NCBI GenBank assembly: GCA_944391505.1
Contig: CALXTV010000003.1
Coordinates: 1 to 64,000, forward strand
From: an uncultured Alphaproteobacteria bacterium
GTDB lineage: Bacteria > Pseudomonadota > Alphaproteobacteria > RF32 > CAG-239
DNA length: 64,000 bases
Direction of reading: 5' to 3'
Positions 13,590 to 27,564 of this stretch are shown in pieces. Every line of letters starts with the position of its first letter. Position 1 is the first letter of the stretch. Position numbers and translations under genes: made by a program. Under the pieces are notes generated by a model. That model saw only the letters and a program-made list of their open reading frames with translations, was not told the origin of the DNA and searched no databases.

Positions 13590-14070
13590 ATTGAAAATAG
13601 GGTTGGATTTCCATGGCGTCATAACCGATAATCCGGAATATTTCAAGGCTTTTGCGGATGAGGCGCTGCGCCGTGGATACGAAATACACATTATCAGCGG
13701 CGGCCCCAAAGCCACGATTGAAGAATTTTTGAAACAATGGGGCATAAAATATACCAATATTTTTGCCATCGTCGATTATTATGACGCCAGAGGCTGCGTC
13801 ACTTTTTATGAAAACGGCGAGTTTAAGGTTCCGGACGAACTTTGGAACTGCGCCAAAGCTGCGTATTGCGGCGAAAACAATATAAACATTCATATTGATG
13901 ACACCATGAGCTACAGCGAAGGCTTCACCACGCCGTTCTGCTTTTATGACGTAAAGACCAGACATTGCCGGACGCAGGATCAAAAGGTCATCAACCTGGA
14001 AGTCTCGCCCAAAAACGCCTTAGACGACATTGAAACCTTTATCAGAAATAAACCCGCTCCGAAAGCCTAA
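13576..14070 (+). CDS. HAD-superfamily-like protein with altered motif I
   Basis: 164 aa, no signal peptide. It opens with GLDFHGVITD, which resembles HAD motif I (DxDGT/V) with the second Asp replaced by His. Motif II would be IISGG, Lys-rich helices follow, and motif IV would be HIDDTMSY. The size fits a small cytoplasmic HAD phosphatase or nucleotidase. The second Asp normally acts as general acid, so activity is uncertain. It overlaps the AsmA-like gene by 14 bases and converges on the next gene with a four-base overlap. Confidence 0.65.
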   Translation: MKSDKLKIGLDFHGVITDNPEYFKAFADEALRRGYEIHIISGGPKATIEEFLKQWGIKYTNIFAIVDYYDARGCVTFYENGEFKVPDELWNCAKAAYCGENNINIHIDDTMSYSEGFTTPFCFYDVKTRHCRTQDQKVINLEVSPKNALDDIETFIRNKPAPKA

Positions 14071-14855
14071 AACTCCAGCACCGGCACAACGGAAATACTA
14101 TCATATTTATCGTAGTAGATCAAATTACTGCCATTAAGAATTGTACCCCACACGCCGCTACCTGAAAACTCCGAGGAAAACCACAGCCAGTAGTTGCCAA
14201 GATTTGATGCACCACCAACCTTATTTACAACTGTAGGAAACGCACTCCAGTTCTTCTGAATGTTTCTTAAAACACCGGCCGCCGGCAGACACCACTTGCC
14301 GGACGATGCCGTCGTCGGCGCATATTTTCGGGCAGCCCAGGCCGCCGGATAAGTGTCGGCATCGCCCGCCGCGACAATTTTATCTGTATTCCCGCAACTG
14401 TCAAAATCGGCTTCAGCCAATGTCGTACTTGTCATATTCGGAAGCTCAAGAACATCTGTATATTCCGTAGACCAATACATACCGACACCGGAATTGCTTC
14501 GATTGCCGTTCTTATCAAGCCACCACGGCGCCATAATTTGCCCGCCGACACCATCGGCATTGACATAAACCACAATACCCAGCACCGTTTTGCTGCTGTC
14601 ATGGTTGGCTGCGGCAACGCAGGTGTTGTCCGTGTAGAAAATATCGCCGATATTACACTTGGGGCGGGGCGTCGGACAGTAATAACTGTCTCCGGTCGGG
14701 CATTTCAAACCGCCTCGCGGACATTCTTCTTGCGAATATTTATAACCGAGCGAAGCACATTCCGGCGTCGCCGTGCAGGTGACAGCCAAAACCTCGGAAG
14801 CATAAAGGACAGAAGCAAAAGCGGAAAGTAAAAGAAAAAGATATTGTGTTTGCAT
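14067..14855 (-). CDS. Secreted Cys-rich protein with DUF1566-like C-terminal part
   Basis: 262 aa. The signal peptide (residues 1-24) ends VLAVTC. A Cys-rich segment follows (about 25-85, nine or ten Cys), then a domain with aromatic-rich strands including KWCLPAAG and YWLWFSSEF. The latter recall DUF1566/fimbrial-tip-like lectin folds, but this is a weak resemblance. It is alone on its strand between the envelope operon and the phage module. It could be a surface protein or a gene carried with the phage region; I cannot decide. Confidence 0.6.
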   Translation of the reverse strand: MQTQYLFLLLSAFASVLYASEVLAVTCTATPECASLGYKYSQEECPRGGLKCPTGDSYYCPTPRPKCNIGDIFYTDNTCVAAANHDSSKTVLGIVVYVNADGVGGQIMAPWWLDKNGNRSNSGVGMYWSTEYTDVLELPNMTSTTLAEADFDSCGNTDKIVAAGDADTYPAAWAARKYAPTTASSGKWCLPAAGVLRNIQKNWSAFPTVVNKVGGASNLGNYWLWFSSEFSGSGVWGTILNGSNLIYYDKYDSISVVPVLEF

Positions 14856-15023: not shown

Positions 15024-15263
15024 TTACGGTTTTCCGTAATGCCTGATGGCGTAGTTGCGATATTCTTCCAGCATTTTTTCTATCGCGCGGCTGTCTTTTT
15101 CTTCTTTTCGCAGGCGGCAGATTTCCCGCGTCTTGTCTTGGCATATCTTGTCCAGCGAACGAATGGCGGCACGATTCGTCAAATCGGGAATGAAATCAAA
15201 TTTTTTTTCTGCGGCATCAAGAGCTTCCATGGCCGATTGCAGATAATATTTGTGCAGGTTCAT
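15024..15263 (-). CDS. Small protein downstream of the phage repressor, function unknown
   Basis: 79 aa from the ATG at 15263 (MNLHKYYLQ), which has AAGGA at six bases; a longer start 30 bases upstream lacks this. It is highly charged and helical, without a membrane segment. It overlaps the end of the repressor gene by about 14 residues' worth of sequence on the other side of its start, so the two are co-transcribed. It could be a repressor partner or antirepressor; that is a guess from position alone. Confidence 0.6.
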   Translation of the reverse strand: MNLHKYYLQSAMEALDAAEKKFDFIPDLTNRAAIRSLDKICQDKTREICRLRKEEKDSRAIEKMLEEYRNYAIRHYGKP

Positions 15264-15273
15264 TGGATATTCC

Positions 15274-15894
15274 TTATTGGCTGGCCCAGACAATACGGTG
15301 AACGACGCGAATGTCTTTGACGTTGACGGAAGATTTTTCGGCAGAGAGTATATCTTTCAGTTCCAGGGTTGTCGCCGTCCGGCGCACAAATTCGCGAATG
15401 ACTATGTCATTATTGTTCAAAAAAACAGCAATACGGTCATTGCGGCGGATTTCCGAACCCTGCGACAAAATCAGCAAGGTGCCGTTGCGATAAAAGGGAG
15501 AAAATTTGTCCGTATTTATATCCAGCGCATACAAATTGTCATGACCGTCAGGAAAACGGATATTCTGCCATTTGTTTTTTTGAAAATCGGCATAAATTGT
15601 TTTTTCGCCGGTCAGCAGTCTGGAACATTCAATATAGGGAATGGAGTGCGCGGTTTTTTCTTCATCGCCCTGATTGGCCAGGGCAAAAAACTCGTCAAAG
15701 CTGATATTGCAGACTTCAATGATTTTGTTCAGACTGTCAAGCGAAGGCCATCTTTTTTTTCCGTCGGGACGAACACGTTTGCTTTTGTTGAAAGTCGTGG
15801 CGTCAAGCCCGGCCTTTTTTGCCAGTCCGGAAGGAGACAGGCCGTTAATTTTTGCCAACTTATCAACAGCTTTCCAGACTTGTTCATATTTCAT
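15274..15894 (-). CDS. CI-like phage repressor: XRE helix-turn-helix plus degenerate S24 domain
   Basis: 206 aa. Residues 10-72 form an XRE-type helix-turn-helix (GLSPSGLAKKAGLDATTFNK). Residues about 85-200 match the LexA/CI S24 fold (PYIEC, RNDRIAVFL, VRRTATTLELK). The positions that should hold the autocleavage Ser and Lys appear to be Lys130 (TDKFSPFYRNG) and Arg167 (VIREFV), so RecA-stimulated self-cleavage looks impossible. It has a strong SD (AGGAGG) and its own promoter with an operator in the spacer, suggesting autoregulation. It is transcribed divergently from the early phage genes. Confidence 0.87.
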   Translation of the reverse strand: MKYEQVWKAVDKLAKINGLSPSGLAKKAGLDATTFNKSKRVRPDGKKRWPSLDSLNKIIEVCNISFDEFFALANQGDEEKTAHSIPYIECSRLLTGEKTIYADFQKNKWQNIRFPDGHDNLYALDINTDKFSPFYRNGTLLILSQGSEIRRNDRIAVFLNNNDIVIREFVRRTATTLELKDILSAEKSSVNVKDIRVVHRIVWASQ

Positions 15895-15935
15895 TTTTCC
15901 TCCTCGGAATCAAAAGATTCTCTTAACTTGAACCG

Positions 15936-15964
15936 ATTATAAAATATTTTATTGTAGGAATCAA
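15936..15964 (-). promoter_or_regulatory. Leftward repressor promoter
   Basis: Read leftward: -35 TTGATT (complement of 15959-15964), a 17-base spacer, and -10 TATAAT (complement of 15936-15941). The spacer contains most of operator word 15952-15961. Confidence 0.7.
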
Positions 15965-15991
15965 ATCTTTTTTATGTTGAAATTCCTACAA
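15952..15991. promoter_or_regulatory. Divergent operator pair TTGTAGGAAT / ATTCCTACAA
   Basis: TTGTAGGAAT at 15952-15961 and its exact reverse complement at 15982-15991 are 20 bases apart. Each sits over the -35/spacer of one of the two divergent promoters. A third copy (nine of ten bases) lies at the late promoter, 16777-16785. The natural ligand is the adjacent XRE repressor (inference). Confidence 0.65.
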
Positions 15992-16004
15992 CTTTATATA
16001 TAAG
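15977..16004 (+). promoter_or_regulatory. Rightward early promoter of the phage module
   Basis: -35 TTGAAA (15977-15982), a 16-base spacer and -10 TATAAG (15999-16004). The spacer contains operator copy 15982-15991. Confidence 0.6.
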
Positions 16005-16054
16005 TTTGAAATATTAATAATTAGTTAAGTTGATTCATGGAGGAGAATCTGAAA

Positions 16055-16384
16055 ATGAGAGAGATTTATGAACCTTTCGATAATGCGGAAGAAGTTTGGT
16101 TTTGGTTTTGTAGGTCTCTGGAAGCCCGGGGTGACGGCTTGCGCTCGCAAAGCGACTATCCGGGCAAACGGCGTTTTATAGAAATCGGGGATATTGCCCG
16201 GATGTTAAAACAGATGCGCACCCGCGGCGAAATAACCAACCGCTGCCTGCGCACCATGTCCAAATGGGGAAGACTGGGGACGCCGCCGTATTATGACAGC
16301 CGCGCCAAAAGGAGCGAAATCAGGCTCTGGGAATACGGCATATATGTTTTGAACTTGTATCTGAAAGCCAAGGGGATTTTATAA
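16055..16384 (+). CDS. Early phage protein, function unknown
   Basis: 109 aa, basic and helical. The start is the ATG at 16055 (MREIYEPF), with GGAGGAG nine bases upstream; an earlier in-frame ATG at 16037 overlaps that SD and is rejected. A central basic helix pair (RMLKQMRTRGEITNRCLRT) could bind DNA, but I do not recognise the family. It is the first gene to the right of the operator region and ends two bases before the next start, so it belongs to the early operon. A regulator of the late genes is a reasonable guess from position. Confidence 0.65.
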   Translation: MREIYEPFDNAEEVWFWFCRSLEARGDGLRSQSDYPGKRRFIEIGDIARMLKQMRTRGEITNRCLRTMSKWGRLGTPPYYDSRAKRSEIRLWEYGIYVLNLYLKAKGIL

Positions 16385-16385
16385 A

Positions 16386-16796
16386 ATGAAAAACGCTGTC
16401 TTCGTTGCTCCGCAATTTGATAAGGCTTATGTTGTTTTTACGGATAACACAAGCCTGTGGTGGCTGCGTCTGCTCAAACCGGGTTTTCGCCACTGTTATC
16501 TTTTGCTGAGTTGCCGCGGCGGACGCTGCTGGCTTGAGTTGAATCCTTATTCTGACCAGATTGAAGTCTCTTTTTGCGAATTTGCGGCCTCTCAGTCGGA
16601 AACATCACTCCTCCGGACTTATGAAAATTGCCTCGTCTGTCCCGTCAAAATCAAAAAAGCGCCGCAAAAATGCGCGCCTTTGGGTTTTTTTACCTGCGTC
16701 GAAATGGTCAAAAGAGTGCTGGGAATACATGATTTTCGCGTAATCACTCCATATCAGTTATATAAAAAATTACAGGTTGTAGGAAAAAACTCTTGA
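16386..16796 (+). CDS. Small Cys/His protein, possibly permuted NlpC/P60 (YiiX-like)
   Basis: 136 aa without signal peptide. It has His36 in FRHCYLLL followed by beta strands, and Cys104 at the start of a helix in FFTCVEMVKRVLG. The order His then Cys, with the Cys in the C-terminal helix, is that of circularly permuted papain-like (YiiX/YebB) enzymes. This is a pattern match only. Such enzymes cut peptide or amide bonds, so a lysis or peptidoglycan role is conceivable. Its stop codon overlaps the -35 of the late promoter, and operator copy three lies in its last codons. Confidence 0.6.
   Translation: MKNAVFVAPQFDKAYVVFTDNTSLWWLRLLKPGFRHCYLLLSCRGGRCWLELNPYSDQIEVSFCEFAASQSETSLLRTYENCLVCPVKIKKAPQKCAPLGFFTCVEMVKRVLGIHDFRVITPYQLYKKLQVVGKNS
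16777..16785. promoter_or_regulatory. Third repressor operator copy at the late promoter
   Basis: TTGTAGGAA, matching nine of ten bases of the early operators, ends seven bases upstream of the late -35 hexamer. Confidence 0.5.
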
Positions 16797-16821
16797 CAAG
16801 CGGTTTTTTTTATGTTACACC
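16793..16821 (+). promoter_or_regulatory. Late promoter of the virion operon
   Basis: Consensus -35 TTGACA (16793-16798), a 17-base spacer and an extended -10 TGTTACACC, with TACACC at 16816-16821. It drives the run of genes from 16917 to 26878. Confidence 0.7.
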
Positions 16822-16873
16822 CTAAACATCACTTGCTGGTAGTGTATCCAAAATAAACCGAGTAATGAAAAAC

Positions 16874-16900
16874 AGGCCTCCTTACAGAGGTCTTTTTTTT
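16874..16900 (+). terminator. Leader terminator between late promoter and first virion gene
   Basis: AGGCCTC (16874-16880) pairs with GAGGTCT (16887-16893), including one G-T pair, around a six-base loop. The T-run extends to 16900. It lies about 50 bases after the expected start of transcription and 17 bases before the first gene. Confidence 0.65.
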
Positions 16901-16916
16901 GTGGGATTAAACAGGA

Positions 16917-17228
16917 ATGACAACCAAAAAGATAAAAACGCTCAAAGCGTTGAAAACCAGGCTGCGAAAAACACTGCCGGAAAAAATTTCGGAAGTGATA
17001 GACAGCTACGAAAATTTTTCCGAACAGCCGGTTCCTGACGACGCCAAAGGTTTCAGTGCGCACCATTCGGCCTGCAAGTCGGCGGTAATTCATGCCGAAA
17101 CGCTTTTAAAACTGGCCGAATGGACCGACGAAAAGTCAGCTTCGGAAGGGACGGACGGGGAAAACAGACAGATTCTGAAGCTTTTGGCCGAAGCGCAAAA
17201 CGAACTGAACAACGATGACGAAAATTGA
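16917..17228 (+). CDS. Small phage protein upstream of terminase, possible small terminase subunit
   Basis: 103 aa with a basic N-terminus (residues 1-22, seven Lys/Arg), helical middle and acidic C-terminus. Position immediately before terL, with a 14-base overlap, is where terS normally lies. No recognisable helix-turn-helix is obvious, so the small-terminase role is by position only. It is the first gene after the leader terminator. SD AGGA is unusually close to the ATG. Confidence 0.55.
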   Translation: MTTKKIKTLKALKTRLRKTLPEKISEVIDSYENFSEQPVPDDAKGFSAHHSACKSAVIHAETLLKLAEWTDEKSASEGTDGENRQILKLLAEAQNELNNDDEN

Positions 17229-18705
17229 TTTTTTTGAATTCGTATACGTCTGGTTTCGGTTACAGGAGCTGAAGGTTCCGGCACACCAGAAAAAGATAGC
17301 CCGCTGGCTGTCTACGCTCTGGAACCGCGGCGGCGATCGTCAGGCGCTGCTGATGGCCTTCCGTAATTCGGGAAAATCGACCGTGGTCGGTTTGTTTTGC
17401 GCCTGGGTTTTATATCGCAGTCCGTCAACCCGGATTCTGGTAATGGCGGCGGATCATGCTTTGGCCAAGAAAATGGTTCGCAACGTCAAACGCATTGTCG
17501 AGCAGCATCCGCTCACCGGGAACCTGAAGCCGGCACGGCTCGACCAATGGGCTTCTGACCAGTTTACCGTCAACCGGAGCGCCGAGCTGCGCGATCCGTC
17601 CATGCTTGCCAAAGGTTTGGGCGCCAATATAACAGGTCTGCGTGCCGATCTGATTATCTGCGACGACGTCGAAGTTCCCAAAAACTGCGATACGCCACTC
17701 AAACGTCAGGAGATGCGGGAAAAGCTCAACGAACTTGACTACATTCTGACCCCGGGCGGCATGCAGCTCTATATCGGCACGCCGCATACTTATTATACGA
17801 TTTATCAGACGGCATTTGATGCAAAAAAACCGGAAACGGAACCGTTTTTGCAGGGATTCGAAAAGCTGTTGATTCCGATTTTGGACGAAGCGGGCAAAAG
17901 CGCCTGGCCGGAAAGGTTCTCCGAAGATAAAATTGCTTCGGTGCGTATCCGTTCCGGAGAAAACAAATTTTTGTCGCAGATGATGCTGGAGCCGGTAAAT
18001 TTTCGCGACAGCATTCTCGATCCGTCAAGACTTTGCTCTTATGAAGGCGAAATTGAAGTCGTTTTTGCCAACGGTCGCGAAATTCTGAAAATCGGCGGAC
18101 GGAAGATGCTTTCCGCCTCCTGCTGGTGGGATCCGTCTTTTGCCGCCGGCAAAAAGGGCGACAACAGCGTCGTTGCCTGCGTTTTTACCGACGAAGAGGG
18201 AAAGTTCTGGCTGCATGACCTTGAATACATAAAAATTCCGGTTGAAAATGCCGACAATGCCGCTTCGCTGCAATGTCAGAAAGTGGCCGATTTTATGATT
18301 CGCAACCGGCTTCCCTCCATAAGGGTTGAGATTAACGGCATCGGCCGTTTTCTGCCCGGAATATTAAGACAGGTTCTGCGTATGCGCCGCATAAGCGCCG
18401 CTGTTCTGGAAGCAGCATCGCATGAAAACAAACAGCAGCGGATTTTGGAAGCCTTCGACGTGCTCTTGGCGGAGCGCGCCCTGCATGTTAACCGCAAAAT
18501 CTGGAAAACGCCGTTCATAGAAGAAATGCGCGAATGGAGCGTTGACGGCGCGACGCATGACGATGCGCTGGATGCGGTGGCCGGCTGCCTGGCTTCGGAA
18601 CCGGTGCGCATCGGTTCTTTCCGGGCAGACGCGGCGCCGTTGTCCCAAAACGTCTGGCAGGGAAGTTTCGAACAATATAATGCCGAAACGAATTTTAACT
18701 TGTAA
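17215..18705 (+). CDS. terL: Phage terminase large subunit
   Basis: Packaging motor of 496 aa: an N-terminal ATPase translocates DNA into the prohead and a C-terminal RNase-H-like nuclease cuts concatemers. Walker A is FRNSGKST (about 49-56), Walker B LIICDDVE (146-153) and the coupling motif YIGTPH (about 184). The nuclease domain begins near residue 300 (WWDPSF, first acidic residue) and ends with THDDALDA (about 445), giving the expected acidic triad. The frame is intact and the length is normal, so the protein could function. The type matches podovirus/T7-like terminases. Confidence 0.93.
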   Translation: MTKIDFFEFVYVWFRLQELKVPAHQKKIARWLSTLWNRGGDRQALLMAFRNSGKSTVVGLFCAWVLYRSPSTRILVMAADHALAKKMVRNVKRIVEQHPLTGNLKPARLDQWASDQFTVNRSAELRDPSMLAKGLGANITGLRADLIICDDVEVPKNCDTPLKRQEMREKLNELDYILTPGGMQLYIGTPHTYYTIYQTAFDAKKPETEPFLQGFEKLLIPILDEAGKSAWPERFSEDKIASVRIRSGENKFLSQMMLEPVNFRDSILDPSRLCSYEGEIEVVFANGREILKIGGRKMLSASCWWDPSFAAGKKGDNSVVACVFTDEEGKFWLHDLEYIKIPVENADNAASLQCQKVADFMIRNRLPSIRVEINGIGRFLPGILRQVLRMRRISAAVLEAASHENKQQRILEAFDVLLAERALHVNRKIWKTPFIEEMREWSVDGATHDDALDAVAGCLASEPVRIGSFRADAAPLSQNVWQGSFEQYNAETNFNL

Positions 18706-18717
18706 AGGAAAAAGAAC

Positions 18718-18975
18718 ATGTTTTTTGACACTTTCAACTGGGTCACGATGATTGAGCTTCCGATTTTGGCAGCTCTGTTCCGGATTATTTGCCGACAGAA
18801 AAAGGATTGTGAAAATTCCGTCGGTTTTTGTAAAGACGCTCTGGCGGAATTCAAACTTCATGTCGCCCGCAATTATGTGTCGGTAAATTATCTGAAAGAC
18901 GTCGAAACCAGACTTACCGACCATTTGCTGCGTATTGAAAAAAAGCTTGACGGCGTAGGGAGAAGAAACCGATGA
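18718..18975 (+). CDS. Small phage membrane protein, possible lysis accessory (spanin/holin partner)
   Basis: 85 aa with one hydrophobic segment (about residues 8-25) followed by a soluble helical C-terminal part containing two Cys. It overlaps the SleB-type lysin by four bases and precedes a two-helix holin candidate. A lysis role is therefore likely from context. The topology could suit an inner-membrane spanin, but no partner with a lipobox is seen. I do not recognise the family. Confidence 0.6.
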   Translation: MFFDTFNWVTMIELPILAALFRIICRQKKDCENSVGFCKDALAEFKLHVARNYVSVNYLKDVETRLTDHLLRIEKKLDGVGRRNR

Positions 18976-19388
18976 ACCATGATGCAGATATTCTGGCCCG
19001 TACAATCTACGGCGAAGCGAGAGGCGAGAGCATTTCCGGACAGGAAGCGATCGCCTCCGTTGTTTTAAATCGGGTTGCTTTTGCCAAACGGCGCGGCCGC
19101 TATTGGTGGGGAAACACGATTGCCGCCGTCTGTCTTTCACCGTGGCAGTTTTCTTGTTGGAATCCCGGCGATCCCAACCGGAAAATTATTGAACGGGCCG
19201 ATGATGCCGACATAGGTTTTTGCATTTGCAAGCGGATTGCTCTGCGCGCCGTGTCGGGATTGCTGGAAGACCGAACCTCGGGAGCAACGCATTATCATAC
19301 CCGCAGCCTGAGACCCAAATGGTCAATCGGCAAAATTCCCTGCGCCGAAATCGGCAGTCACGTCTTTTATAACGATATAGAGGTCTGA
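18972..19388 (+). CDS. SleB-type cell wall hydrolase (endolysin)
   Basis: 138 aa, essentially one Hydrolase_2 (SleB/CwlJ) domain. Visible motifs are IYGEARGE with the catalytic Glu near residue 15, VVLNRV, WQFSCWNPGDPN, ATHYHT, and a closing IGSHVFY. The family cleaves peptidoglycan glycan strands as lytic transglycosylases or amidases. It has no signal peptide, so export needs a holin. It sits in a tight lysis cassette with the preceding membrane protein and the following two-helix protein. Confidence 0.9.
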   Translation: MNHDADILARTIYGEARGESISGQEAIASVVLNRVAFAKRRGRYWWGNTIAAVCLSPWQFSCWNPGDPNRKIIERADDADIGFCICKRIALRAVSGLLEDRTSGATHYHTRSLRPKWSIGKIPCAEIGSHVFYNDIEV

Positions 19389-19389
19389 C

Positions 19390-19710
19390 ATGCGCGGTTT
19401 GACCAAAAGAGTTCTTTTACCGCTGCGTCTGCTGCGGCGCATAAGCCGCATGCCCGGCGGAAAAAAATGCCCGGCGCCGTGGCTGACGGTTTTCGGATTG
19501 TCAGTCTCCGCCGCCTGGCTGATGCTGACGGCCGCGTTGTGTCTGATCGCCGTCGGCGGTGGATCGCACGCGTCAGAAATTATTATGGCTTTGGCCGAAG
19601 CTTCGCCTTTGTGGGGTGCGGCGCTCGGTGTTCTGGGCATTGCCCTGGTCAGGGACGGAACGTCTCCGCGGCGCCGTCCGAAAAAGAAAAACAAAAATCA
19701 AAATAACTAA
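19390..19710 (+). CDS. Holin candidate with two membrane helices
   Basis: 106 aa. A basic N-terminus is followed by two hydrophobic segments (about residues 31-55 and 64-87) and a C-terminal tail of mostly Arg, Lys and Asn (RRRPKKKNKNQNN). Two helices plus a dense basic tail is the layout of class II holins. It starts one base after the lysin stop. Function is inferred from topology and position. Confidence 0.6.
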   Translation: MRGLTKRVLLPLRLLRRISRMPGGKKCPAPWLTVFGLSVSAAWLMLTAALCLIAVGGGSHASEIIMALAEASPLWGAALGVLGIALVRDGTSPRRRPKKKNKNQNN

Positions 19711-19730
19711 TTTTTTGAAAGGAACATACC

Positions 19731-19922
19731 ATGGGAGGATTTAAACCGTCTCGCAAACTCCTGATTTTGCAGGCCATTGAACAAGACCGCAAAAGAAAAG
19801 AGGAACTTGCGCGCAAACACCGCGGTTATGACAGTCTGGTCAAAACCTCATACACCGGCATAAAGGAAGAAGAGCCGGAAACAAAAACGGAAACCGGACG
19901 CAAAAAACTTCTCGGAGAATAA
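19731..19922 (+). CDS. Small charged phage protein, function unknown
   Basis: 63 aa, with a basic helical first half (EQDRKRKEELARKHRG) and an acidic Glu/Thr-rich second half. SD AAGGA precedes the ATG and the stop is two bases before the portal start. Small charged genes in this position are common in podoviruses. No family recognised. Confidence 0.6.
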   Translation: MGGFKPSRKLLILQAIEQDRKRKEELARKHRGYDSLVKTSYTGIKEEEPETKTETGRKKLLGE

Positions 19923-19924
19923 TC

Positions 19925-21490
19925 ATGGAAGACGACAGACTTGAAAAACTGGCCGGACGCTATCAGAAAGCGGCCGAAAAAAAGAATTGCTGGGAAGATC
20001 ATTGGCGCGAATGCTACGAATATGCTTTTCCGCAGCGCGAAAACGTCAGCAGCGAAGTGCTTTATGAAAATGCCGGCGCCAAGAACAATCTGCATCTTTA
20101 CGACGGTACGGCTCCGGATGCTGTCGATCAACTGGCGTCGTCGTTGTTGGCCGAGCTGACACCGGCCTGGGCAAAATGGTTCGGACTTAAGGCCGGAAGC
20201 GAATTGAGCGAAACCGAGCGCACACAGGTGGCGCCGGTTTTGGAAAAAGCGACTGATATTATGCAGCAGAATTTCGAACATTCGAATTTTGCGGTGGAAA
20301 TCCATCAATGCTATCTGGATTTGGTAACGGCCGGAACCGCCTGCCTGATGTTTGAGGAGGCGCCTTTGGGGGAGGCGACGGCGTTTCGTTTTTATGCCGT
20401 CCCCCTGCGCGAAATAGCCATTGAAGAAAACGCTTCCGGAAAAATTGACACGACGTTTCGCTGTTCGCGCATTAACCTCGGCGGTATCCGCGAGCGTTTT
20501 CCCGAGTGCGAAATACCGACCTCTTTTGCGCAGAAATGCGCGGACGATCCCGATTGCAAAGTCAGATTGATAGAGGCGGTCATGCCGCGCAACGGAAATT
20601 GCGGCGCCTGCGGTTATGATTATGTCGCCTTTGTCTGGGACGGGGAGTTTGGTGGCGGCAATGCCGGTTTTATCCTGCGGGAAGGCGTGTTTGAAACTTC
20701 GCCTTTCATTAATTTTCGCTGGCTCAAGGCTCCGGGAGAAATTTACGGACGTTCGCCGGTTATGAAAGCGCTGCCGGACATCAAAACCGCCAATAAGGTT
20801 GTGGAATTGATTCTGAAAAACGCCTCAATTTCGGTAACCGGAATTTGGCAGGCAGACGACGACGGCGTTTTAAATCCGTCCAACATCAGGCTGGTGCCGG
20901 GTGCAATTATTCCCAAAGCAGTCGGTTCCAAAGGATTGACGCCTCTGGAAGCACCGGGAAAATTTGACGTCTCGCAGCTTGTGCTGGAAGACCTGCGCAA
21001 ACGTATCAACCATGCGCTGCTGGCCGACCGTCTGGCCGAAATCAATACGCCGTCCATGACTGCAACCGAGGTTCTGGAACGTTCGGCAGAAATCGCCCGT
21101 ATTCTGGGTGCCAGTTTCGGCCGCCTGCAATCCGAGCTGCTGACACCTCTCTTGAAACGTGCGTTTTGTATTTTGCGCCGTCGCGGCGATATTATGAATT
21201 TCGACCTTGACGGCAAAATTGTCGATATCCAGTATAAATCGCCGCTGGCTTTGTCACAGGCGCGTAAAGACGTCGGCAATGTGACCGAATGGATAACCCA
21301 GACGGCGGCGCTGGGTGCGGACGGGCTTGCCGCCGTCAACATGTTTGAAGCGGCCAAATGGCTCGGACGTACCTTAAATGTTCCGGCTTCGCTGATTGTC
21401 GAAACCAAACCCGAAATTACGGCGGAGGCGGCAAAACTTTTGTCCTCCGGAAACGATATGAAGGAGGCGGCAAATGCCGGAATATTATGA
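19925..21490 (+). CDS. Portal (head-to-tail connector) protein, T7 gp8-like
   Basis: 521 aa, the normal length for the podovirus head-tail connector family. The N-terminal part has the family pattern of an aromatic helix (ECYEYAFPQREN) then LYDGTAPDAVDQLASSLLAELTP. The central part has YGRSPVMKALPDIKTANKV, and the C-terminus ends in an alpha-helical barrel-like segment. Twelve copies should form the channel through which DNA enters and leaves. It is followed with a 17-base overlap by the Bbp19-like gene. The frame is intact. Confidence 0.9.
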   Translation: MEDDRLEKLAGRYQKAAEKKNCWEDHWRECYEYAFPQRENVSSEVLYENAGAKNNLHLYDGTAPDAVDQLASSLLAELTPAWAKWFGLKAGSELSETERTQVAPVLEKATDIMQQNFEHSNFAVEIHQCYLDLVTAGTACLMFEEAPLGEATAFRFYAVPLREIAIEENASGKIDTTFRCSRINLGGIRERFPECEIPTSFAQKCADDPDCKVRLIEAVMPRNGNCGACGYDYVAFVWDGEFGGGNAGFILREGVFETSPFINFRWLKAPGEIYGRSPVMKALPDIKTANKVVELILKNASISVTGIWQADDDGVLNPSNIRLVPGAIIPKAVGSKGLTPLEAPGKFDVSQLVLEDLRKRINHALLADRLAEINTPSMTATEVLERSAEIARILGASFGRLQSELLTPLLKRAFCILRRRGDIMNFDLDGKIVDIQYKSPLALSQARKDVGNVTEWITQTAALGADGLAAVNMFEAAKWLGRTLNVPASLIVETKPEITAEAAKLLSSGNDMKEAANAGIL

Positions 21491-21695
21491 TACCGGGCAG
21501 ATGAGCGATGAAGAAATCCGCACCGCTTATGCCAGGTGTTTTTTGACTCGGGAGGGACGGATTGTTCTCTCTCATTTGCGAAAAATTACCCTGGAGCGCT
21601 ATCTCGGGCCGAACAGTTCTTCCGACGAACTTCGTCATTTGGAAGGTCAGCGGCATCTGGTAAGTACCATTCTGGCGCTCTCGGGCAGTAAATAA
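21474..21695 (+). CDS. Bbp19-like small phage protein
   Basis: 73 aa. The sequence FLTREGRIVLSHLR, then GPNSSSDELRHLEGQRHLV, fits the small Bbp19-like family, found beside portal genes of podoviruses. Its function is not established. It overlaps the portal gene by 17 bases. Confidence 0.75.
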   Translation: MPEYYDTGQMSDEEIRTAYARCFLTREGRIVLSHLRKITLERYLGPNSSSDELRHLEGQRHLVSTILALSGSK

Positions 21696-21719
21696 CCTGT
21701 TTTTTTGAAAGGAAAAAAA

Positions 21720-22415
21720 ATGAACAAAAATACCGGAGGAAATCTGATTGAAAAATCGCCTTCCTCAAAAAACGGCAAACCGGCCGGGCTTCCCGACAAG
21801 TTTTGGGACGCGGAGGCCGGAGAAGTTAAACTGGAAGCGCTGTTGGAAGATTACAACAGCATGGCTTCCCGCGACGAAAACCTGATTGAAAGCCATAACC
21901 GCCGTATGCCGGAGAGTTATGACAAATATGAGGTCAGATTTCCTCATCCGCTGCTTGATCGTGACGATGAAATCTTTAAGCGTTTTTACGAAAAAGGTTT
22001 TACCAATGAACAGGCGCAGTTGGTCTATGATTTGGCCAATGAGCGCGTCATTCCCGTTTTGGACAGCCTGGCTTCCGATTACGAAGCCGAAAGACAGCTT
22101 GAAAGACTGAAACGCTTCTTCGGTTCGGAAGAAAAATTCAACGAAGTCAGTCGTCAGCTTTCCGTCTGGGCCAAAAGCAATCTCCGTCCGGATGTTTACG
22201 ATGCGCTGGCTTCAACGGCAGACGGCGTTATTGCCCTGTATAAAATGATGTCGTCCAATGAACCGGCGCTTGGCAAAGATCGGGACTTTGGCTCGGAACT
22301 GAGTGAGGAAAGCCTGCGCAAGATGATGGAAGACCCGAGATATTGGCGGGATAAAGACGTGTCTTATATTGCCAAGGTAACCAAAGGTTTCGAAAAACTC
22401 TACCCCGGAAAATAA
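21720..22415 (+). CDS. Probable capsid scaffold/assembly protein (T7 gp9-like)
   Basis: 231 aa from the ATG at 21720 (MNKNTGGN), with AAAGGA seven bases upstream; a TTG-initiated extension overlaps that SD and is rejected. It is acidic, mostly helical and Cys-free, with a disordered Lys/Ser/Gly start, typical of scaffolding proteins. Position between the portal and major capsid genes is where T7-like phages carry gp9. Its stop codon lies in the loop of a terminator-like hairpin. Confidence 0.75.
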   Translation: MNKNTGGNLIEKSPSSKNGKPAGLPDKFWDAEAGEVKLEALLEDYNSMASRDENLIESHNRRMPESYDKYEVRFPHPLLDRDDEIFKRFYEKGFTNEQAQLVYDLANERVIPVLDSLASDYEAERQLERLKRFFGSEEKFNEVSRQLSVWAKSNLRPDVYDALASTADGVIALYKMMSSNEPALGKDRDFGSELSEESLRKMMEDPRYWRDKDVSYIAKVTKGFEKLYPGK

Positions 22416-22429
22416 AATCCGGGTTTTTT
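22404..22429 (+). terminator. Intra-operon hairpin between scaffold and capsid genes
   Basis: CCCGGA (22404-22409) pairs with TCCGGG (22418-22423), then T6. The stem is only six bp, and the scaffold stop codon is in the loop. It may be a partial terminator or an RNA-processing site. Confidence 0.55.
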
Positions 22430-22471
22430 ATTAACCGAAAACTGATTTAAATTTTAGGGAGAAAAAACAAA

Positions 22472-23302
22472 ATGTCTACACAAGTAAGTGAATCCTTTGT
22501 CAAACAGTTTGAAGCCGAAGTGCATCTTTGCTACCAGCAGAACGGTTCCAAACTCCGCAATGCTGTCCGTTACAAAAACGGCGTAAAGGGATCTTCCACC
22601 GTCTTTCAGAAAGTCGGCAAGGGTGTTGCTTCACAGAAAGCGCGCCACGGATTGGTTCCGGTCATGAGCCTGGATCACTCGCCGGTCGAATGCGAGCTTC
22701 AGGATTATTATGCCGGTGACTGGGTCGACGCGCTGGACGAGCTGAAGCTGAGTATAGACGAACGCCGGGTTATTGCCAATTCCGGCGCCTATGCTCTCGG
22801 CCGCAAAACCGATGAATTGATTATCGCGGCCCTGTCCAAGGCAGGTACAACCAACGATGTCGGTGATTATACGGCGGTCATGAGCAAGAAAGATATTCTT
22901 GACGCTTTTGCCAAGCTGAATGAAAACGACGTACCGGACGATGGTCAGCGTTTTGGATTGGTCGGCCCGCACCAGTGGAATGCTTTGCTCAATATTCCGG
23001 AATTTTCGAACTCCGATTATGCCGGTGACAATCTGCCGTTTTTGAAAGGTACGGAAAGCCGCAAATGGCTGGGAATTAACTGGATTATGCACACCGGCCT
23101 GCCGCTGACCGGCACCAATCGCGACTGCTTTATCTTCCACAAAACCGCGGTCGGTCATGCCTGTGGACAGGAAGTAAAATCTGACATTAGCTGGCATGGC
23201 GATCATGCGGCGCACTTTGTCAACAATATGATGAGTCAGGGCGCCTGCCTGATTGATGAAACCGGTGTTGTCCGTATCAAGTGCAAAGAAGCTTCAATCT
23301 AA
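22472..23302 (+). CDS. Major capsid protein
   Basis: 276 aa. The N-terminal pattern (SFVKQFEAEVHLCYQQ, then VFQKVGKG) and the central YYAGDWVDALDELK are those of the HK97-fold capsid family found in podoviruses (Phage_capsid_2 type). It has a strong SD (AGGGAG), as expected for the most abundant virion protein. The gene is bracketed, with the decoration gene, by terminator-like hairpins on both sides. The frame is intact and the length is normal for the family. Confidence 0.9.
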   Translation: MSTQVSESFVKQFEAEVHLCYQQNGSKLRNAVRYKNGVKGSSTVFQKVGKGVASQKARHGLVPVMSLDHSPVECELQDYYAGDWVDALDELKLSIDERRVIANSGAYALGRKTDELIIAALSKAGTTNDVGDYTAVMSKKDILDAFAKLNENDVPDDGQRFGLVGPHQWNALLNIPEFSNSDYAGDNLPFLKGTESRKWLGINWIMHTGLPLTGTNRDCFIFHKTAVGHACGQEVKSDISWHGDHAAHFVNNMMSQGACLIDETGVVRIKCKEASI

Positions 23303-23324
23303 CCCGCAAAGAAAGGAAATAACA

Positions 23325-23603
23325 ATGGCTTTTAATTCGAAAAACTTTAGCGTCATGGCATACGCTAACGGCTTTACGTTGTGGAACTACCAGACGCCCG
23401 ATACGCTGGAAACCGTAACGGCTTCCGGATATTTTAACGACATTTCGGCATTCGTTCGCAAAGGCGACATGATTTTGACCGTTGCCAACAACGGTGCCGC
23501 CGTTGCGCCGGCCGTTCTTTCCGTCACGGATATGGCCGCCGGTTCGGTAACCGTTGCCGATATAATTCCCCGGAATGTTTCTCAGGAAGATAACGTCGCT
23601 TAA
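23325..23603 (+). CDS. Head decoration-like protein
   Basis: 92 aa from the ATG at 23325 (MAFNSKNF), with AAAGGA before it; an upstream start inside the capsid gene is rejected. It is beta-rich and starts with the pattern SVMAYANGFTLWNY, which I recognise from small phage proteins directly downstream of capsid genes. Their size and position suggest capsid decoration or stabilisation. Confidence 0.7.
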   Translation: MAFNSKNFSVMAYANGFTLWNYQTPDTLETVTASGYFNDISAFVRKGDMILTVANNGAAVAPAVLSVTDMAAGSVTVADIIPRNVSQEDNVA

Positions 23604-23634
23604 AAAAACAACCGCATTACTGGCAAATGATACC

Positions 23635-23668
23635 GGAGGAGCCGTCGCATGGCGGCACCTCCTTTTTT
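23635..23668 (+). terminator. Strong hairpin between capsid/decoration and tail genes
   Basis: GGAGG-A-GCCG (23635-23644) pairs with CGGC-A-CCTCC (23653-23662), with one A-A mismatch, then T6. T7 carries its T-phi terminator at the equivalent place, between capsid gene 10 and tail gene 11. Confidence 0.75.
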
Positions 23669-23682
23669 ATGGAGAATAAAAA

Positions 23683-24252
23683 ATGGCTTATACCGACATC
23701 AGCATTTGTTCAAATGCACTGCTAAAGATTGGTGCCGAAAGCATAACCTCTTTTCTCGACGGTACGGCGGAAGCGGAAGTTGCCGCCAATCTTTATCCGA
23801 TGATAAGAGACGGTTTGCTGGCCTCTTATCCGTGGAGTTTTGCCGTCGGGCAGAAATCTCTCCCGCGTCTGGCCGGGGCACCGTTGGCCGATTACGGCTA
23901 TGCGTATCAGCTTCCCAATGACTTTTTGCGCGTACTTTCCGCCGGCAGCGGACGCAACGGGAGAGGCATCGAATACCGCATTGTGGAAAATCGTCTGCAT
24001 ACCGGCGCACCGGAAGTTAATCTGACTTATATATTTCGTCCGCACGAAAGCCTTTTCCCGGCTTATTTCTGCGAGCTTCTGATTGCCCGCCTGGCTTCGG
24101 AATTCTGTCTGCCGCTGACCGAAAGCACCACGCGTTCGGAATATCTTCAAAAGTCTTTTCTTGAGCTTGAAAAGCGGGCACGTCTGACCGATGCCCAGCA
24201 GTCGACCCCGCAGCGCTTTGAAGATTTTACTTTGGTGGAGGCACGGCAATGA
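23683..24252 (+). CDS. Tail tubular protein A (T7 gp11-like)
   Basis: 189 aa. The opening YTDISICSNALLKIGAESI, then YPMIRDGLLASYPWSFA, is typical of podovirus gp11-like adaptor proteins. These form the ring between the portal and the nozzle. It has a good SD (GGAG), and the next gene overlaps its stop by four bases. The frame is intact. Confidence 0.88.
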   Translation: MAYTDISICSNALLKIGAESITSFLDGTAEAEVAANLYPMIRDGLLASYPWSFAVGQKSLPRLAGAPLADYGYAYQLPNDFLRVLSAGSGRNGRGIEYRIVENRLHTGAPEVNLTYIFRPHESLFPAYFCELLIARLASEFCLPLTESTTRSEYLQKSFLELEKRARLTDAQQSTPQRFEDFTLVEARQ

Positions 24253-26150
24253 GTAACCTGCTGCAGGTCAAAACCAATTTTACTGCCGGCTGTATCGGCC
24301 GCAATTTATACGGCCGCGGCGATTTAAGCATATTCGAAAACGGTGCCCGCACGCTGGAAAACGTCATTATCCACCCGACCGGCGGCGTTTCTCGCCGCAA
24401 GGGACTGGCATATATTGACCGCATAAACAAAAAGGCCAGACTGATTCCGTTTGAGTTTAACACCGAACAAACCTATTTGATTTGCATCTGTGCCGGAGAA
24501 GTCCGCATTTATCGCAACGGGGTCTGCATCAAAACCCTGTCAGCTCCCTGGCAGGAGTCACAGTTAACTTCGCTGAACTACACGCAAAGTGCCGATACGC
24601 TTCTGGTCGTTCATCCTGATGTTTCGCCGCGGCAGATAACCCGAGGAGACAACGATGACTGGAAAATCGGTGAGTTGGAATATTACACCAAAGATGGCAG
24701 AGTGTATTGCCCTTTTTACAATTATTATAATCATAAAGCCAAAATCAATCCGCGGGGAACCGGCGGAACGATAACCGTTTTGTCGGAAACAAATATTTTT
24801 ACGCCGGATTCGGTCGGCAGTCTGATTAATGTTAGGGGCGGGCAGATTAAGATTAGCGAATATGTCAGCGCGTCGGAAGTTGTGGCGGTAGTAAACAAAG
24901 GACTTTCATCAACCGGCGAAACGGTTGATTGGGAAGAGTCTGCGTTTTCGCCGCAGCGTGGCTGGCCAAATTCAATTACGTTCCATCAAAACCGTCTGGT
25001 TATAGGAGGTTCCAGAAGCCTGCCCAACCGTTTGTGGTTTTCCAAGTCTGCCGATTTGTTTAATTTTGATATTGGCACCGGCCTGGATGACGAAGCAATC
25101 GAATTTGGTATATTGTCGGATCAGGTCAACGTTATCAAAGCCGTTGTATCAGCCAGACATCTGCTGGTTTTTACGACCGGCGCCGAATGGATGGTCAGCG
25201 GCAATCCGCTGACGCCGACCAGCATCCAGCTTAGCCGCCAAACCAGCACGGGAAGTTATGACGCCTGCAGCATTTATCCGCAGCAGATTGACGGTGCGAC
25301 GGTTTTTGTTTCGCAGAGCGGACGGCAGTTGCGCGAGTTTTTATATACCGATACGGAACAGGCCTACCAGTCCAAAGACCTGACGCTGATGTCCGGCGAC
25401 ATCATAAACAATCCGGTCGATAATGATTTCAGCCGTGATGAATGTGTATTGTACATGGTTCTTGCCGACGGCACGGTTTCTTGCCTGACCACCTACCGTA
25501 CCGAAGAAGTGACTGCCTGGAGCCGTTTAAAAACGGCCGGAAAATTTCAGTCCGTGGCCGTCATCGGCAATGAAGTTTATTTCTGCGTCCAACGGGGAGA
25601 GGCTTATTTTATTGAAAAAATGAGTGATGAGTTTTACGCCGACTGTGCGATTGTGCTTACCTCCGAAACGCCGAAAAAAGAATGGTCGGGACTGGACAAT
25701 CTTGAAGGATATGAAGTCGCGGTTCTGGCTGATGGTTTCAGCGTCGGAAAATATACGGTTTCGGATGGCAGCATAACACTGCTTGAAGAGGCCTCCGAAC
25801 TGGAAGTCGGACTTCCTTACGAACATGTCATAGAGCCGCTGCCGTATGTTGCCGATGCGGCCAGACCCTATTCGCCGCAGGCGCTTCGGGTTATCAGCGG
25901 TCTGTTTCGCATTCTCAATACCAGATGTTTTTGTATCGACATGGGCGGCGGCTATCTGCAGGTTCCCCTTAAACGCTTGTTCAAAGACAAAATTCTCGAT
26001 GCGCCGCCGAGTACCTACAGCGGCGATGTAAAACTCCGCGCATTGGGCTGGATAAGAGAAATGGATACGCCGCTTTGGAGTATCAGATCGGACGAACCCC
26101 TGGCTTTTACGCTGCTTTCGGTCGTTCTGGAGATAAAAATAAAAGGTTAA
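24249..26150 (+). CDS. Tail tubular protein B / nozzle (T7 gp12-like)
   Basis: 633 aa. The N-terminal signature (TNFTAGCIGRNLYGRGDLS, then ENVIIHPTGGVSRRKG) and the central HQNRLVIGGSRSLPNRLWFSKS are conserved in gp12-like nozzle proteins of podoviruses. The protein is beta-propeller-like with little helix. It is shorter than T7 gp12 (about 800 aa) but complete at both ends. It is the largest gene in the module and the last tail component visible. Confidence 0.87.
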   Translation: MSNLLQVKTNFTAGCIGRNLYGRGDLSIFENGARTLENVIIHPTGGVSRRKGLAYIDRINKKARLIPFEFNTEQTYLICICAGEVRIYRNGVCIKTLSAPWQESQLTSLNYTQSADTLLVVHPDVSPRQITRGDNDDWKIGELEYYTKDGRVYCPFYNYYNHKAKINPRGTGGTITVLSETNIFTPDSVGSLINVRGGQIKISEYVSASEVVAVVNKGLSSTGETVDWEESAFSPQRGWPNSITFHQNRLVIGGSRSLPNRLWFSKSADLFNFDIGTGLDDEAIEFGILSDQVNVIKAVVSARHLLVFTTGAEWMVSGNPLTPTSIQLSRQTSTGSYDACSIYPQQIDGATVFVSQSGRQLREFLYTDTEQAYQSKDLTLMSGDIINNPVDNDFSRDECVLYMVLADGTVSCLTTYRTEEVTAWSRLKTAGKFQSVAVIGNEVYFCVQRGEAYFIEKMSDEFYADCAIVLTSETPKKEWSGLDNLEGYEVAVLADGFSVGKYTVSDGSITLLEEASELEVGLPYEHVIEPLPYVADAARPYSPQALRVISGLFRILNTRCFCIDMGGGYLQVPLKRLFKDKILDAPPSTYSGDVKLRALGWIREMDTPLWSIRSDEPLAFTLLSVVLEIKIKG

Positions 26151-26173
26151 TTTTTTTAGAAAGGAGAAATATT

Positions 26174-26671
26174 ATGGGAGGATTATCAGCCGCAGCAGCC
26201 GGTGCGGCAGGTTCTGCGGGAACAACCGCTTCGGCGGGAATGGCGGGCGCGGCCGGAACGTCGGCACTGCTTGCATCAAAAGCGGGCGCTTCCGGACTTT
26301 CGGCCTCTTCGCTGCTTGGACCGATGGGCATGGCGCTGGATGTAAAAAATATCTTTGATTCAAAAAAGGCTGCCAAAAAACAGGCCAAAAATTCTTTTCT
26401 TCTGCAATATGCCAATATGCAGCGCAAAAAGAACATTCTGGAACAGCAGCTGGCAACCAGACACGCCCGGATGGCCGGCATGGGCATCAGTTCTTCGGCT
26501 TCGGCAGACGCGGCCAATAACCGTCTTATTGACGAAGCGTTTGATGACATTGAAAAAGATGACATGGCTTTTCTGGCAGAGCAAGATGCCAGGGCTGACG
26601 GTTTTAATCTCAAATATCGTAAAAATCTTCTGGATACAGGGCTTTCTGCCGCCGGAAAAATATTAAAATAG
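26174..26671 (+). CDS. Internal virion protein, gp14-like
   Basis: 165 aa from the ATG at 26174 (MGGLSAAAA), which has AGGAG eight bases upstream. Residues 1-55 are Ala/Gly/Ser-rich and hydrophobic, and could insert in a membrane. The rest is basic coiled-coil-like helix (KKAAKKQAK, QRKKNILEQQLATRHARM). A hydrophobic start plus amphipathic helices, located after the nozzle gene, fits T7 gp14 and related ejection proteins. The large gp15 and gp16 partners are missing downstream. Confidence 0.65.
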   Translation: MGGLSAAAAGAAGSAGTTASAGMAGAAGTSALLASKAGASGLSASSLLGPMGMALDVKNIFDSKKAAKKQAKNSFLLQYANMQRKKNILEQQLATRHARMAGMGISSSASADAANNRLIDEAFDDIEKDDMAFLAEQDARADGFNLKYRKNLLDTGLSAAGKILK

Positions 26672-26683
26672 AGGAGAAATGCA

Positions 26684-26878
26684 ATGCCCAGACCGAAAAT
26701 GACTTATCGGGACAGAAGACGCAAAGCCTATGAAAAGGAATTGCCCTTGGCCGATCAGCTTGATGCCGTGCTCAAGGCTTTTGACATGGTTTTGCAGGAC
26801 GGCGGCGAACTGCCCTACGAACTGATTGATGTTATCGAAAAGTGGCAGGAAATCAAAAACCGTTTTCCGAAAGAATAA
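26684..26878 (+). CDS. Small protein ending the virion operon
   Basis: 64 aa. A basic start (RDRRRKAYEKELP), then ADQLDAVLKAF and a C-terminal IKNRFPKE. The pattern resembles short tail-associated phage proteins (XkdW-like) that often accompany tail-fibre genes; no fibre gene follows here. Good SD (AGGAG). The operon stops 39 bases later at a perfect terminator. Confidence 0.6.
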   Translation: MPRPKMTYRDRRRKAYEKELPLADQLDAVLKAFDMVLQDGGELPYELIDVIEKWQEIKNRFPKE

Positions 26879-26916
26879 AAAAATTTTTTAGGAAAGATTC
26901 TTGGAGGTCAACAAAA

Positions 26917-26952
26917 CAAAAACAGCGTTATCCGAAGATAACGCTGTTTTTG
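26917..26952. terminator. Perfect 16-bp bidirectional terminator closing the phage module
   Basis: Bases 26917-26932 are the exact reverse complement of 26937-26952 around the loop CGAA. A/T-runs on both sides let it work for the rightward phage operon and the leftward gene beyond. Confidence 0.92.
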
Positions 26953-26967
26953 TTTGGCGCTTGAGAT

Positions 26968-27564
26968 TTATTTGAAAATTAACGCTACGCGGTCAATGCT
27001 GCAGGTATCGTTTTCATAGTCCCAGCCATAGCAGCCGATTTCCAAACTGAAGTAACAGACTTTGCCCGGAAGATATCTTTCAAAGCACCAGATACACCCC
27101 CAGTAGCCGTCGGCAGCAATGTCATTTTCCTTTAATAGGTTAATCGTAGCCTTAAATTTCTCTTTTTCTTCATCGCCCCAATGTTTTTTCAAAGCATTTT
27201 TAGATGGCAGAATTCCCGATTTGCCGTTGAAGGTCATCTTTTCTGCAAATTCTTTGACTTTTCGCCATGCCGTTGAAGAAACATTGTCTTCTGTGGCTCC
27301 GCTTCGTAAAGCGACCATTGTTCCGGAAAGAAGCTGAATACCCCAAAGTTCGTGTCTGCGACTTAAGTTTAGTCCGTTCTCAACAGTCAAAACATTGTCC
27401 TGTCGATAAACCAAAGGCAGTTCCGTCGGTATCAAACCGTCTTCTCCATTGGTCTGATTGTTAAGACGACAATTATTGTTGTCATTAACCTTGTTTGTCC
27501 GTTCTCTGTCGCTGATGTTCTGTTTGGGAACCAGCTTTTCCGACTTTTTAAATTTTGTTTCCAT
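26968..27564 (-). CDS. Hypothetical protein beside the phage module
   Basis: 198 aa, not recognised. The N-terminal 50 residues are polar and Asn-rich; the C-terminal half is more structured, with three Cys and several Trp (GCIWCFERY, GCYGWDYEN). The start ATG at 27564 has no SD, so the message may be leaderless or weakly translated. It converges on the phage operon and shares its terminator. It may be cargo at the right phage boundary or an ordinary host gene. Confidence 0.6.
   Translation of the reverse strand: METKFKKSEKLVPKQNISDRERTNKVNDNNNCRLNNQTNGEDGLIPTELPLVYRQDNVLTVENGLNLSRRHELWGIQLLSGTMVALRSGATEDNVSSTAWRKVKEFAEKMTFNGKSGILPSKNALKKHWGDEEKEKFKATINLLKENDIAADGYWGCIWCFERYLPGKVCYFSLEIGCYGWDYENDTCSIDRVALIFK

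What the first reader, a model, noticed from the sequence alone, without database searches (positions are those of the whole stretch)
15024..26952. Compact T7-like virion module lacking integrase, replication genes and tail fibre: decayed prophage or GTA-like particle
In about 12 kb the module has repressor, early pair, terminase, lysis set, portal, scaffold, capsid, decoration, gp11- and gp12-like tail proteins and a gp14-like protein. No frame is broken and the end is a perfect terminator. It lacks integrase, polymerases, gp15/gp16 and a fibre. The described gene-transfer agents known to me are siphovirus-like or otherwise unlike T7, so a maintained podovirus particle would be new. Simple decay usually leaves broken frames, which I do not see.
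Basis: partly seen in the sequence, partly recalled or inferred. Interest (0 to 1): 0.8.

Follow-up and report, generated by a model that had tools for sequence, protein, structure and literature searches.

The report
Inherited T7-like gene-transfer particle, gut bacteria
Gut relatives of Caulobacter carry, at one fixed place in their chromosome, an intact set of genes for a small T7-type virus particle that they inherit like their own genes and run together with a tail-fibre gene kept elsewhere, which looks like a virus tamed to move bacterial DNA between cells.

Summary
The module is real and intact: about 19 genes for a T7-type particle at 15024-26878. It is not a decaying prophage. In a census of 152 species of the family, 24 species in seven genera carry it. 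Wherever flanks are assembled it lies at the same site, in the same gene order, without an integrase; non-carriers have a short or clean empty site. dN/dS is 0.01-0.1, and its tree matches rpoB (14 of 17 splits; at most 3 in shuffles). The 'missing' tail fibre is a separate unlinked operon found in 22 of 24 carriers and 2 of 128 non-carriers. Both loci share a promoter-leader that occurs nowhere else in the sequence held. The early promoter has a CtrA-consensus site in all 23 copies and in none of 11 phage relatives, and the repressor has lost its self-cleavage residues. A related system, with terL split in two around dnaB, occurs in 165 of 183 species of another family with 0.5-1.1 Mb genomes. 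Best reading: dispersed, vertically inherited, T7-derived gene transfer agents. Particle production, DNA packaging and transfer were not tested.

The parts
15024..15293 (-). 89-aa ORF behind the repressor; poorly conserved partner
   Evidence: found in most carriers at 31-68%
15274..15894 (-). repressor, Cro/C1 HTH plus S24-type domain that lacks the Ser and Lys of the self-cleavage dyad
15955..15988 (.). inverted half-sites TAGGAAT...ATTCCTA at the early promoter (putative repressor operator)
   Evidence: conserved in all 23 copies but for the left arm in G119; coordinates
16014..16028 (+). TTAA-N7-TTAA, CtrA consensus site
   Evidence: 23 of 23 copies with changing N7; 0 of 11 phage relatives; consensus from PMC9437464
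16037..16384 (+). early gene, 115 aa, weak HTH match; candidate late regulator
16386..16796 (+). early gene, 136 aa, invariant His-Cys and Cys; function unknown
   Evidence: AlphaFold2 pLDDT 80 without a PDB match
16780..16893 (+). late promoter and leader: TAGGA-N-CTTGAC, -10, CACTTGCTGGTAGTG stem-loop, intrinsic terminator
16917..17228 (+). small terminase (by position and homology with phage terS)
   Evidence: phrog_31793 3.5e-51; alignment
17215..18705 (+). large terminase, T7 type, Walker A/B and nuclease motifs intact
   Evidence: phrog_38 4e-80; sequence
18718..18975 (+). 85-aa lysis-module protein with TM segment
   Evidence: phrog_29007 2.7e-43
18972..19388 (+). SleB-type cell-wall hydrolase (endolysin)
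   Evidence: PF07486 4.9e-20
19390..19710 (+). 106-aa membrane protein, holin candidate
   Evidence: inference from position
19731..19922 (+). 63-aa ORF before the portal
19925..21490 (+). portal (head-tail connector)
   Evidence: PF12236 1e-135
21474..21695 (+). Bbp19-like protein
   Evidence: PF25181 1e-15
21705..22415 (+). scaffold (T7 capsid assembly type)
   Evidence: PF05396 7.6e-15
22472..23302 (+). major capsid protein
   Evidence: PF19821 1.4e-77; PDB 9eg4 2.4e-29
23328..23603 (+). small capsid-associated (decoration) protein
   Evidence: phrog_18004 4.5e-26
23683..24252 (+). gp11-like tail connector
   Evidence: phrog_394 2e-50; PDB 9efk orf17, 8ck1 connector
24249..26150 (+). gp12-like tail nozzle
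   Evidence: phrog_376 2e-157; PDB 8ck1 nozzle 8e-60
26174..26671 (+). gp14-like internal or ejection protein
   Evidence: phrog_8693 0.002; conserved alignment
26684..26878 (+). 64-aa ORF, strongly conserved in all genera with this region assembled except g16
26914..26955 (.). terminator, perfect 19-bp inverted repeat

Best explanation
A domesticated, vertically inherited T7-type particle system, most likely a gene transfer agent. Shown from sequence: a head, packaging, lysis and tail cluster fixed at one site; an unlinked single-copy tail-fibre operon; a promoter-leader shared by the two loci; no integrase or replication genes in the cluster; purifying selection; co-inheritance with the host. 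Proposed working (inferred): the non-cleavable repressor and the CtrA site hold the early promoter under host control; when released, an early protein lets transcription pass the terminators behind the late promoters, so that head genes and fibre are switched on together; procapsids form, the terminase fills them with DNA, lysis proteins open the cell, and the fibre carries particles to kin. Since the genes cannot replicate or integrate and lie at two or more loci, what is packaged should be mostly host DNA.
For: Same site and order in 24 species of seven genera: asmA-HAD-[module]-esterase-SBP-mlaC, at least one flank assembled in all but G155. Frames intact. dN/dS in close pairs: terL 0.02-0.09, portal 0.02-0.06, capsid 0.01-0.04, like flanking host genes. 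Element tree and rpoB tree share 14 of 17 splits, random maximum 3 of 1000, distance r 0.93. Fibre N-domain: 22 of 24 carriers, 2 of 128 non-carriers, Fisher p 4e-22; in phage relatives the fibre is linked, in no A cluster. Strict promoter-leader pattern only at 21 of 24 late promoters and 11 fibre promoters, with 0 hits in about 6.8 million strand-bases of other family loci, the rest of G000 held, phage relatives and group B. TAGGA-N4-6-TCCTTGAC: 20 hits in 1.96 million strand-bases, all at fibre promoters. CtrA consensus 23/23 against 0/11 in phages. Repressor dyad lost in all 11 A copies aligned, kept in 6 phage relatives. Group B: the same kind of system in 165 of 183 species. ComEC present in nearly all.
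Against: No particle, packaged DNA or transfer has been seen. The element is patchy: most of genus g12 and several genera lack it, so it is dispensable. Some phage relatives (L045, L062, L063, L065) also lack the repressor dyad. ComEC is equally present in non-carriers, so it does not discriminate. TerS and TerL look like ordinary phage enzymes; nothing in them shows non-specific packaging. CtrA itself was not searched for in these genomes.
Confidence: 0.75

Rival explanations
1. A domesticated particle kept for something other than gene transfer: a killing particle against relatives (as PBSX does), interference with infecting phages, or controlled lysis.
For: Selection, site and co-regulation data say 'maintained' but not 'for what'. 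A possible third regulon member encodes a peptidoglycan-binding, L,D-transpeptidase-like protein.
Against: Terminase, portal and capsid are all kept and strongly conserved, which a pure killing or lysis device would not need.
Confidence: 0.15
2. A still mobile prophage or integrative element that always enters the same site with a recombinase not recognised here.
For: Presence and absence at one site within genera; clean empty sites.
Against: No att repeats, no integrase in any of the 24 clusters, element tree follows rpoB down to species, fibre unlinked, relic copies of losses in G031 and perhaps G140.
Confidence: 0.04
3. A decaying prophage that happens to be intact.
For: One frameshift in gp11 of G126 and a part-deleted copy in G031 show that decay does occur.
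Against: Intact frames in the other complete copies and dN/dS 0.01-0.1 between species with high dS.
Confidence: 0.02
4. A satellite that makes its own capsids and borrows tails or fibres from a helper phage.
For: The cluster lacks a fibre and replication genes.
Against: It has its own tail connector, nozzle and lysis genes; the host carries a matching fibre under the same leader; no integrase.
Confidence: 0.02

Closest known systems
RcGTA and RcGTA-like GTAs (Rhodogtaviriformidae), per PMC9662315 and PMC10883770
   Same: Phage-derived head-tail cluster in Alphaproteobacteria, vertically inherited, further loci such as the tail fibre apart from it, control of GTAs by CtrA (PMC9437464)
   Different: RcGTA has a 49-nm tail; here portal, scaffold, gp11, gp12 and capsid are of T7 type. 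RcGTA transfer is proven, this is not.
FpGTA of Faecalibacterium (PMC12946183)
   Different: Gram-positive host; sequence relation to it was not tested. For FpGTA packaged host DNA has been sequenced, here not.
BaGTA of Bartonella (PMC9662315)
   Same: Alphaproteobacterial GTA; tailless or short-tailed particles were reported
   Different: Lies in a 79-kb region near an active phage-derived origin; sequence relation was not tested
T7-type phages and prophages of this clade (L024-L047, G078; Pelagibacter phage Hodr, capsid 42%; PDB 8ck1, 9efk, 9eg4)
   Same: Same virion proteins, often the same early genes
   Different: Phages keep the fibre in the cluster, most have terS-terL behind gp12, several keep the S24 dyad; none has the CtrA site or the leader

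Membership tests
Gene transfer agent (features from PMC9662315) | Structural genes derived from tailed phages | tested here: met
Gene transfer agent (features from PMC9662315) | Vertical transmission and co-evolution with the host | tested here: met
Gene transfer agent (features from PMC9662315) | Genes not able to form a self-transmitting genome (no integration or replication genes, loci apart) | tested here: met
   no integrase or replication gene in the clusters; fibre unlinked
Gene transfer agent (features from PMC9662315) | Control by host regulators | tested here: inconclusive
   CtrA consensus in 23/23 early promoters and loss of the repressor dyad; binding not tested, CtrA not searched for
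Gene transfer agent (features from PMC9662315) | Particles package fragments of host DNA and transfer them | not testable with these tools
   no particle data
Gene transfer agent (features from PMC9662315) | Production in a small subpopulation of cells | not testable with these tools
   no expression data
Rhodogtaviriformidae / Bartogtaviriformidae | Sequence homology of TerL and capsid with RcGTA or BaGTA | not tested
   RcGTA and BaGTA sequences were not compared; the families hit here are T7-type (PF12236, PF19821, PF05396)
T7 phage family proper | Phage RNA polymerase and replication genes | tested here: not met
   absent from the cluster
Ordinary prophage | Integrase and att sites | tested here: not met

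The most novel reading that the evidence does not exclude
T7-type phages were turned into gene transfer agents in two families of gut Alphaproteobacteria (and perhaps a third lineage), independent of the known alphaproteobacterial GTAs. In one of them nearly every species keeps the system in a 0.5-1.1 Mb genome, with the large terminase split into separate ATPase and nuclease proteins encoded on either side of the replicative helicase gene and the biotin ligase gene inside the cluster.
Probability: 0.65. Interest if true: 0.92.

Novelty: new variant of a known kind. Interest (0 to 1): 0.87.

Why it matters
Known alphaproteobacterial GTAs do not come from T7-type phages as far as the papers held say, and few GTAs are described from gut bacteria. 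A T7-derived system kept by selection across genera, and a relative kept by about 90% of species in a family with strongly reduced genomes, would mean that routine particle-borne DNA exchange is far more widespread than thought. The shared leader gives a handle for finding all parts of the system, and the split terminase is a testable departure in a motor otherwise regarded as one protein.

Tried and rejected
Decaying or mobile prophage: rejected on site, tree, dN/dS and lack of att repeats. A 16-bp direct repeat at 15655 and 27163 lies inside two genes and was set aside. Weak portal hits in genus g4 were first taken as relatives of the module; they are another podovirus-type cluster with a different capsid. 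Fold of the 136-aa early protein: no PDB match. ComEC as a marker of GTA recipients: universal, so uninformative. The CtrA site and operator were looked for upstream of the fibre with too narrow patterns first; the shared feature turned out to be the late promoter-leader. Whole-genome scan for further leader-bearing loci: only 788 kb of 1.74 Mb could be read. rpoB of G155 groups elsewhere; that assembly is 61% complete and was left out of the tree comparison.

Full report
What is there. The window lies in a 1.74-Mb draft genome (G000). At 15024-26878 it carries about 19 genes: a repressor with a small partner on the minus strand, then, on the plus strand, two early genes, small and large terminase, a lysis set with a SleB-type hydrolase, a 63-aa ORF, portal, Bbp19-like protein, scaffold, capsid, decoration protein, gp11-like connector, gp12-like nozzle, gp14-like protein and a 64-aa ORF, ending at a perfect terminator. 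Capsid, nozzle and connector match solved podovirus-type structures by sequence (9eg4, 8ck1, 9efk).

Same site in many species. A portal search over 152 species of the family found 24 with a close relative (68-100% identity) in seven genera, one copy each; the window's genus has it in 7 of 7. One of these genomes is Azospirillum sp. CAG:239 (contig FR885490). In every carrier with flanks assembled the module sits between the same host genes, in the same order (G018 keeps only the left flank). The distance from asmA to the SBP gene is 12.9-19.3 kb in the carriers where both lie on one contig, except 98 kb in G018. In non-carriers with both on one contig it is 0.5-7.4 kb, most often 0.5-1.4 kb, except 17.2 kb in G048; the flanks read in full are clean in most of them. 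No att-like repeats flank it.

Selection and descent. Frames are intact and lengths constant; the only broken frame seen is gp11 of G126. Pairwise dN/dS in close pairs is 0.02-0.09 for terL, 0.02-0.06 for portal and 0.01-0.04 for capsid, like the flanking host genes (one outlier, G013 scaffold, is probably a frame artefact of the extraction). The tree of six virion proteins and the rpoB tree share 14 of 17 splits over 20 genomes, against at most 3 in 1000 label shuffles, and pairwise distances correlate at 0.93. Losses leave traces: G031 keeps repressor, early genes, the first 20 residues of terS fused to gp11, gp12 and gp14; G140 keeps a repressor-like gene beside the esterase.

The fibre is elsewhere. 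In phage relatives a T7-type fibre follows the tail genes or the lysis genes. None of the A clusters has it, but the fibre N-domain, searched with a phage fibre, occurs once in each of the seven genomes of the genus, on another contig, in a three-gene operon between galE and a SIMPL-type gene and outside any prophage. Over the family it is present (E below 1e-20) in 22 of 24 carriers and, at E below 1e-36, in 2 of 128 non-carriers: G031, which has the relic, and G027, in which only the first part of asmA was matched at the site, so the assembly may be at fault there (Fisher p 4e-22). The operon sits at different places in different genera. The N-domain matches fibres of the solved tails 8ck1 and 9efk.

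One regulon. The late promoter before terS (16780-16893) has TAGGA-N-CTTGAC, a -10, a CACTTG...AGTG stem-loop and an intrinsic terminator, conserved in the clusters aligned. The fibre promoters have the same arrangement: TAGGA-N4-6-TCCTTGAC occurs 20 times in 1.96 million strand-bases and every hit is a fibre promoter. A strict joint pattern hits 21 of the 24 clusters that include the region and 11 fibre promoters, and nothing in about 6.8 million strand-bases of other family loci, phages, group B and the rest of G000 held. A third, looser copy precedes a peptidoglycan-binding L,D-transpeptidase-like gene on G000 contig 7; this is a candidate only. The early promoter carries inverted TAGGAAT half-sites and a CtrA consensus site in 23 of 23 copies, with the site absent from 11 phage relatives. 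The consensus, and the statement that GTAs are under CtrA control, come from PMC9437464. By itself one such site in 64 kb would be chance (3 found, 2.2 expected); the argument is its conservation with a changing spacer. The S24 Ser and Lys are replaced in all 11 A repressors aligned but present in six phage relatives; four other relatives lack them too. So release by RecA-type self-cleavage is unlikely, and control by the host is inferred.

A second lineage (group B). A capsid scan of one-genome-per-species contigs gave 418 hits. The 58 loci of this kind examined, from other gut and rumen Alphaproteobacteria including Candidatus Enterousia, show one layout as far as each contig reaches: HTH gene, regulator, birA, SleB-like hydrolase, scaffold, capsid, decoration, gp11, gp12, gp14-like, ATPase half of terL; then on the other strand a 217-aa gene, a double-HTH regulator and dnaB; then the nuclease half of terL, portal and Bbp19. 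birA and dnaB are named here from their sequences, by inspection. The halves are 194-214 aa and about 270 aa (the nuclease frame is open for 275-349), about 3.2 kb apart; all 55 ATPase halves keep a Walker A motif and all 54 nuclease halves keep HDD. In that family 165 of 183 genomes, of 0.5-1.1 Mb, have the portal. The fibre is inside the cluster in 17 of 58 loci and was found in 9 of 10 genomes searched. dN/dS is mostly 0.01-0.2. On the capsid tree A and B are each a clade on the same side of a well supported branch, among a few phages; whether they arose once or twice is open.

Reading. Fixed site, co-descent, purifying selection, an unlinked co-regulated fibre, loss of integration and of repressor self-cleavage, and a gained CtrA-type site together fit a domesticated particle. 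Among domesticated particles, GTAs are the kind that keep terminase, portal, capsid, fibre and lysis together, so a GTA is the most likely function (0.75), but nothing here shows packaging or transfer. No paper in the library searched links these bacteria to GTAs; FpGTA (PMC12946183) is the only GTA-like element found there that is called podovirus-like. Novelty: new variant of a known kind.

Noticed in passing
L147-L205 (genome contigs), e.g. L153:6251-20289: Group B: a related T7-type cluster with birA and dnaB inside it and terL split in two, in 165 of 183 species of another family of small-genome gut Alphaproteobacteria.
   Followed up: partly
L284-L290, L299 (genus g4 of the same family): Group C: another podovirus-type cluster, different capsid, conserved order in nearly all species of one genus, with a fibre-like gene usually far from the portal; may be a third domesticated lineage.
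   Followed up: partly
L350:1213-2464 (G000 contig 7): Third copy of the operator, stem-loop and terminator leader, before a PG_binding/Tlde1/L,D-transpeptidase-like gene and a small membrane protein.
   Followed up: partly
L120:7870-12416 (G031): Relic of the module: terS residues 1-20 fused to gp11, everything between deleted, fibre operon still present.
   Followed up: yes
L153:9433-9789: Lys/Ala-repeat protein between scaffold and capsid in group B; a DNA-binding, histone H1-like role is possible.
   Followed up: no
window 14067-14855 (-): Secreted, Cys-containing 262-aa protein between HAD and the module, not seen at this place in the other carriers.
   Followed up: no
window 26968-27564 (-): 198-aa ORF right of the terminator, found beside the module only in G000 and G002 (59% identity).
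   Followed up: no
MT838907.1 (L125): 5-kb human faecal record deposited as 'Bacteriophage sp.' with a capsid 80% identical to this one; it may come from such a cluster rather than from a phage.
   Followed up: no
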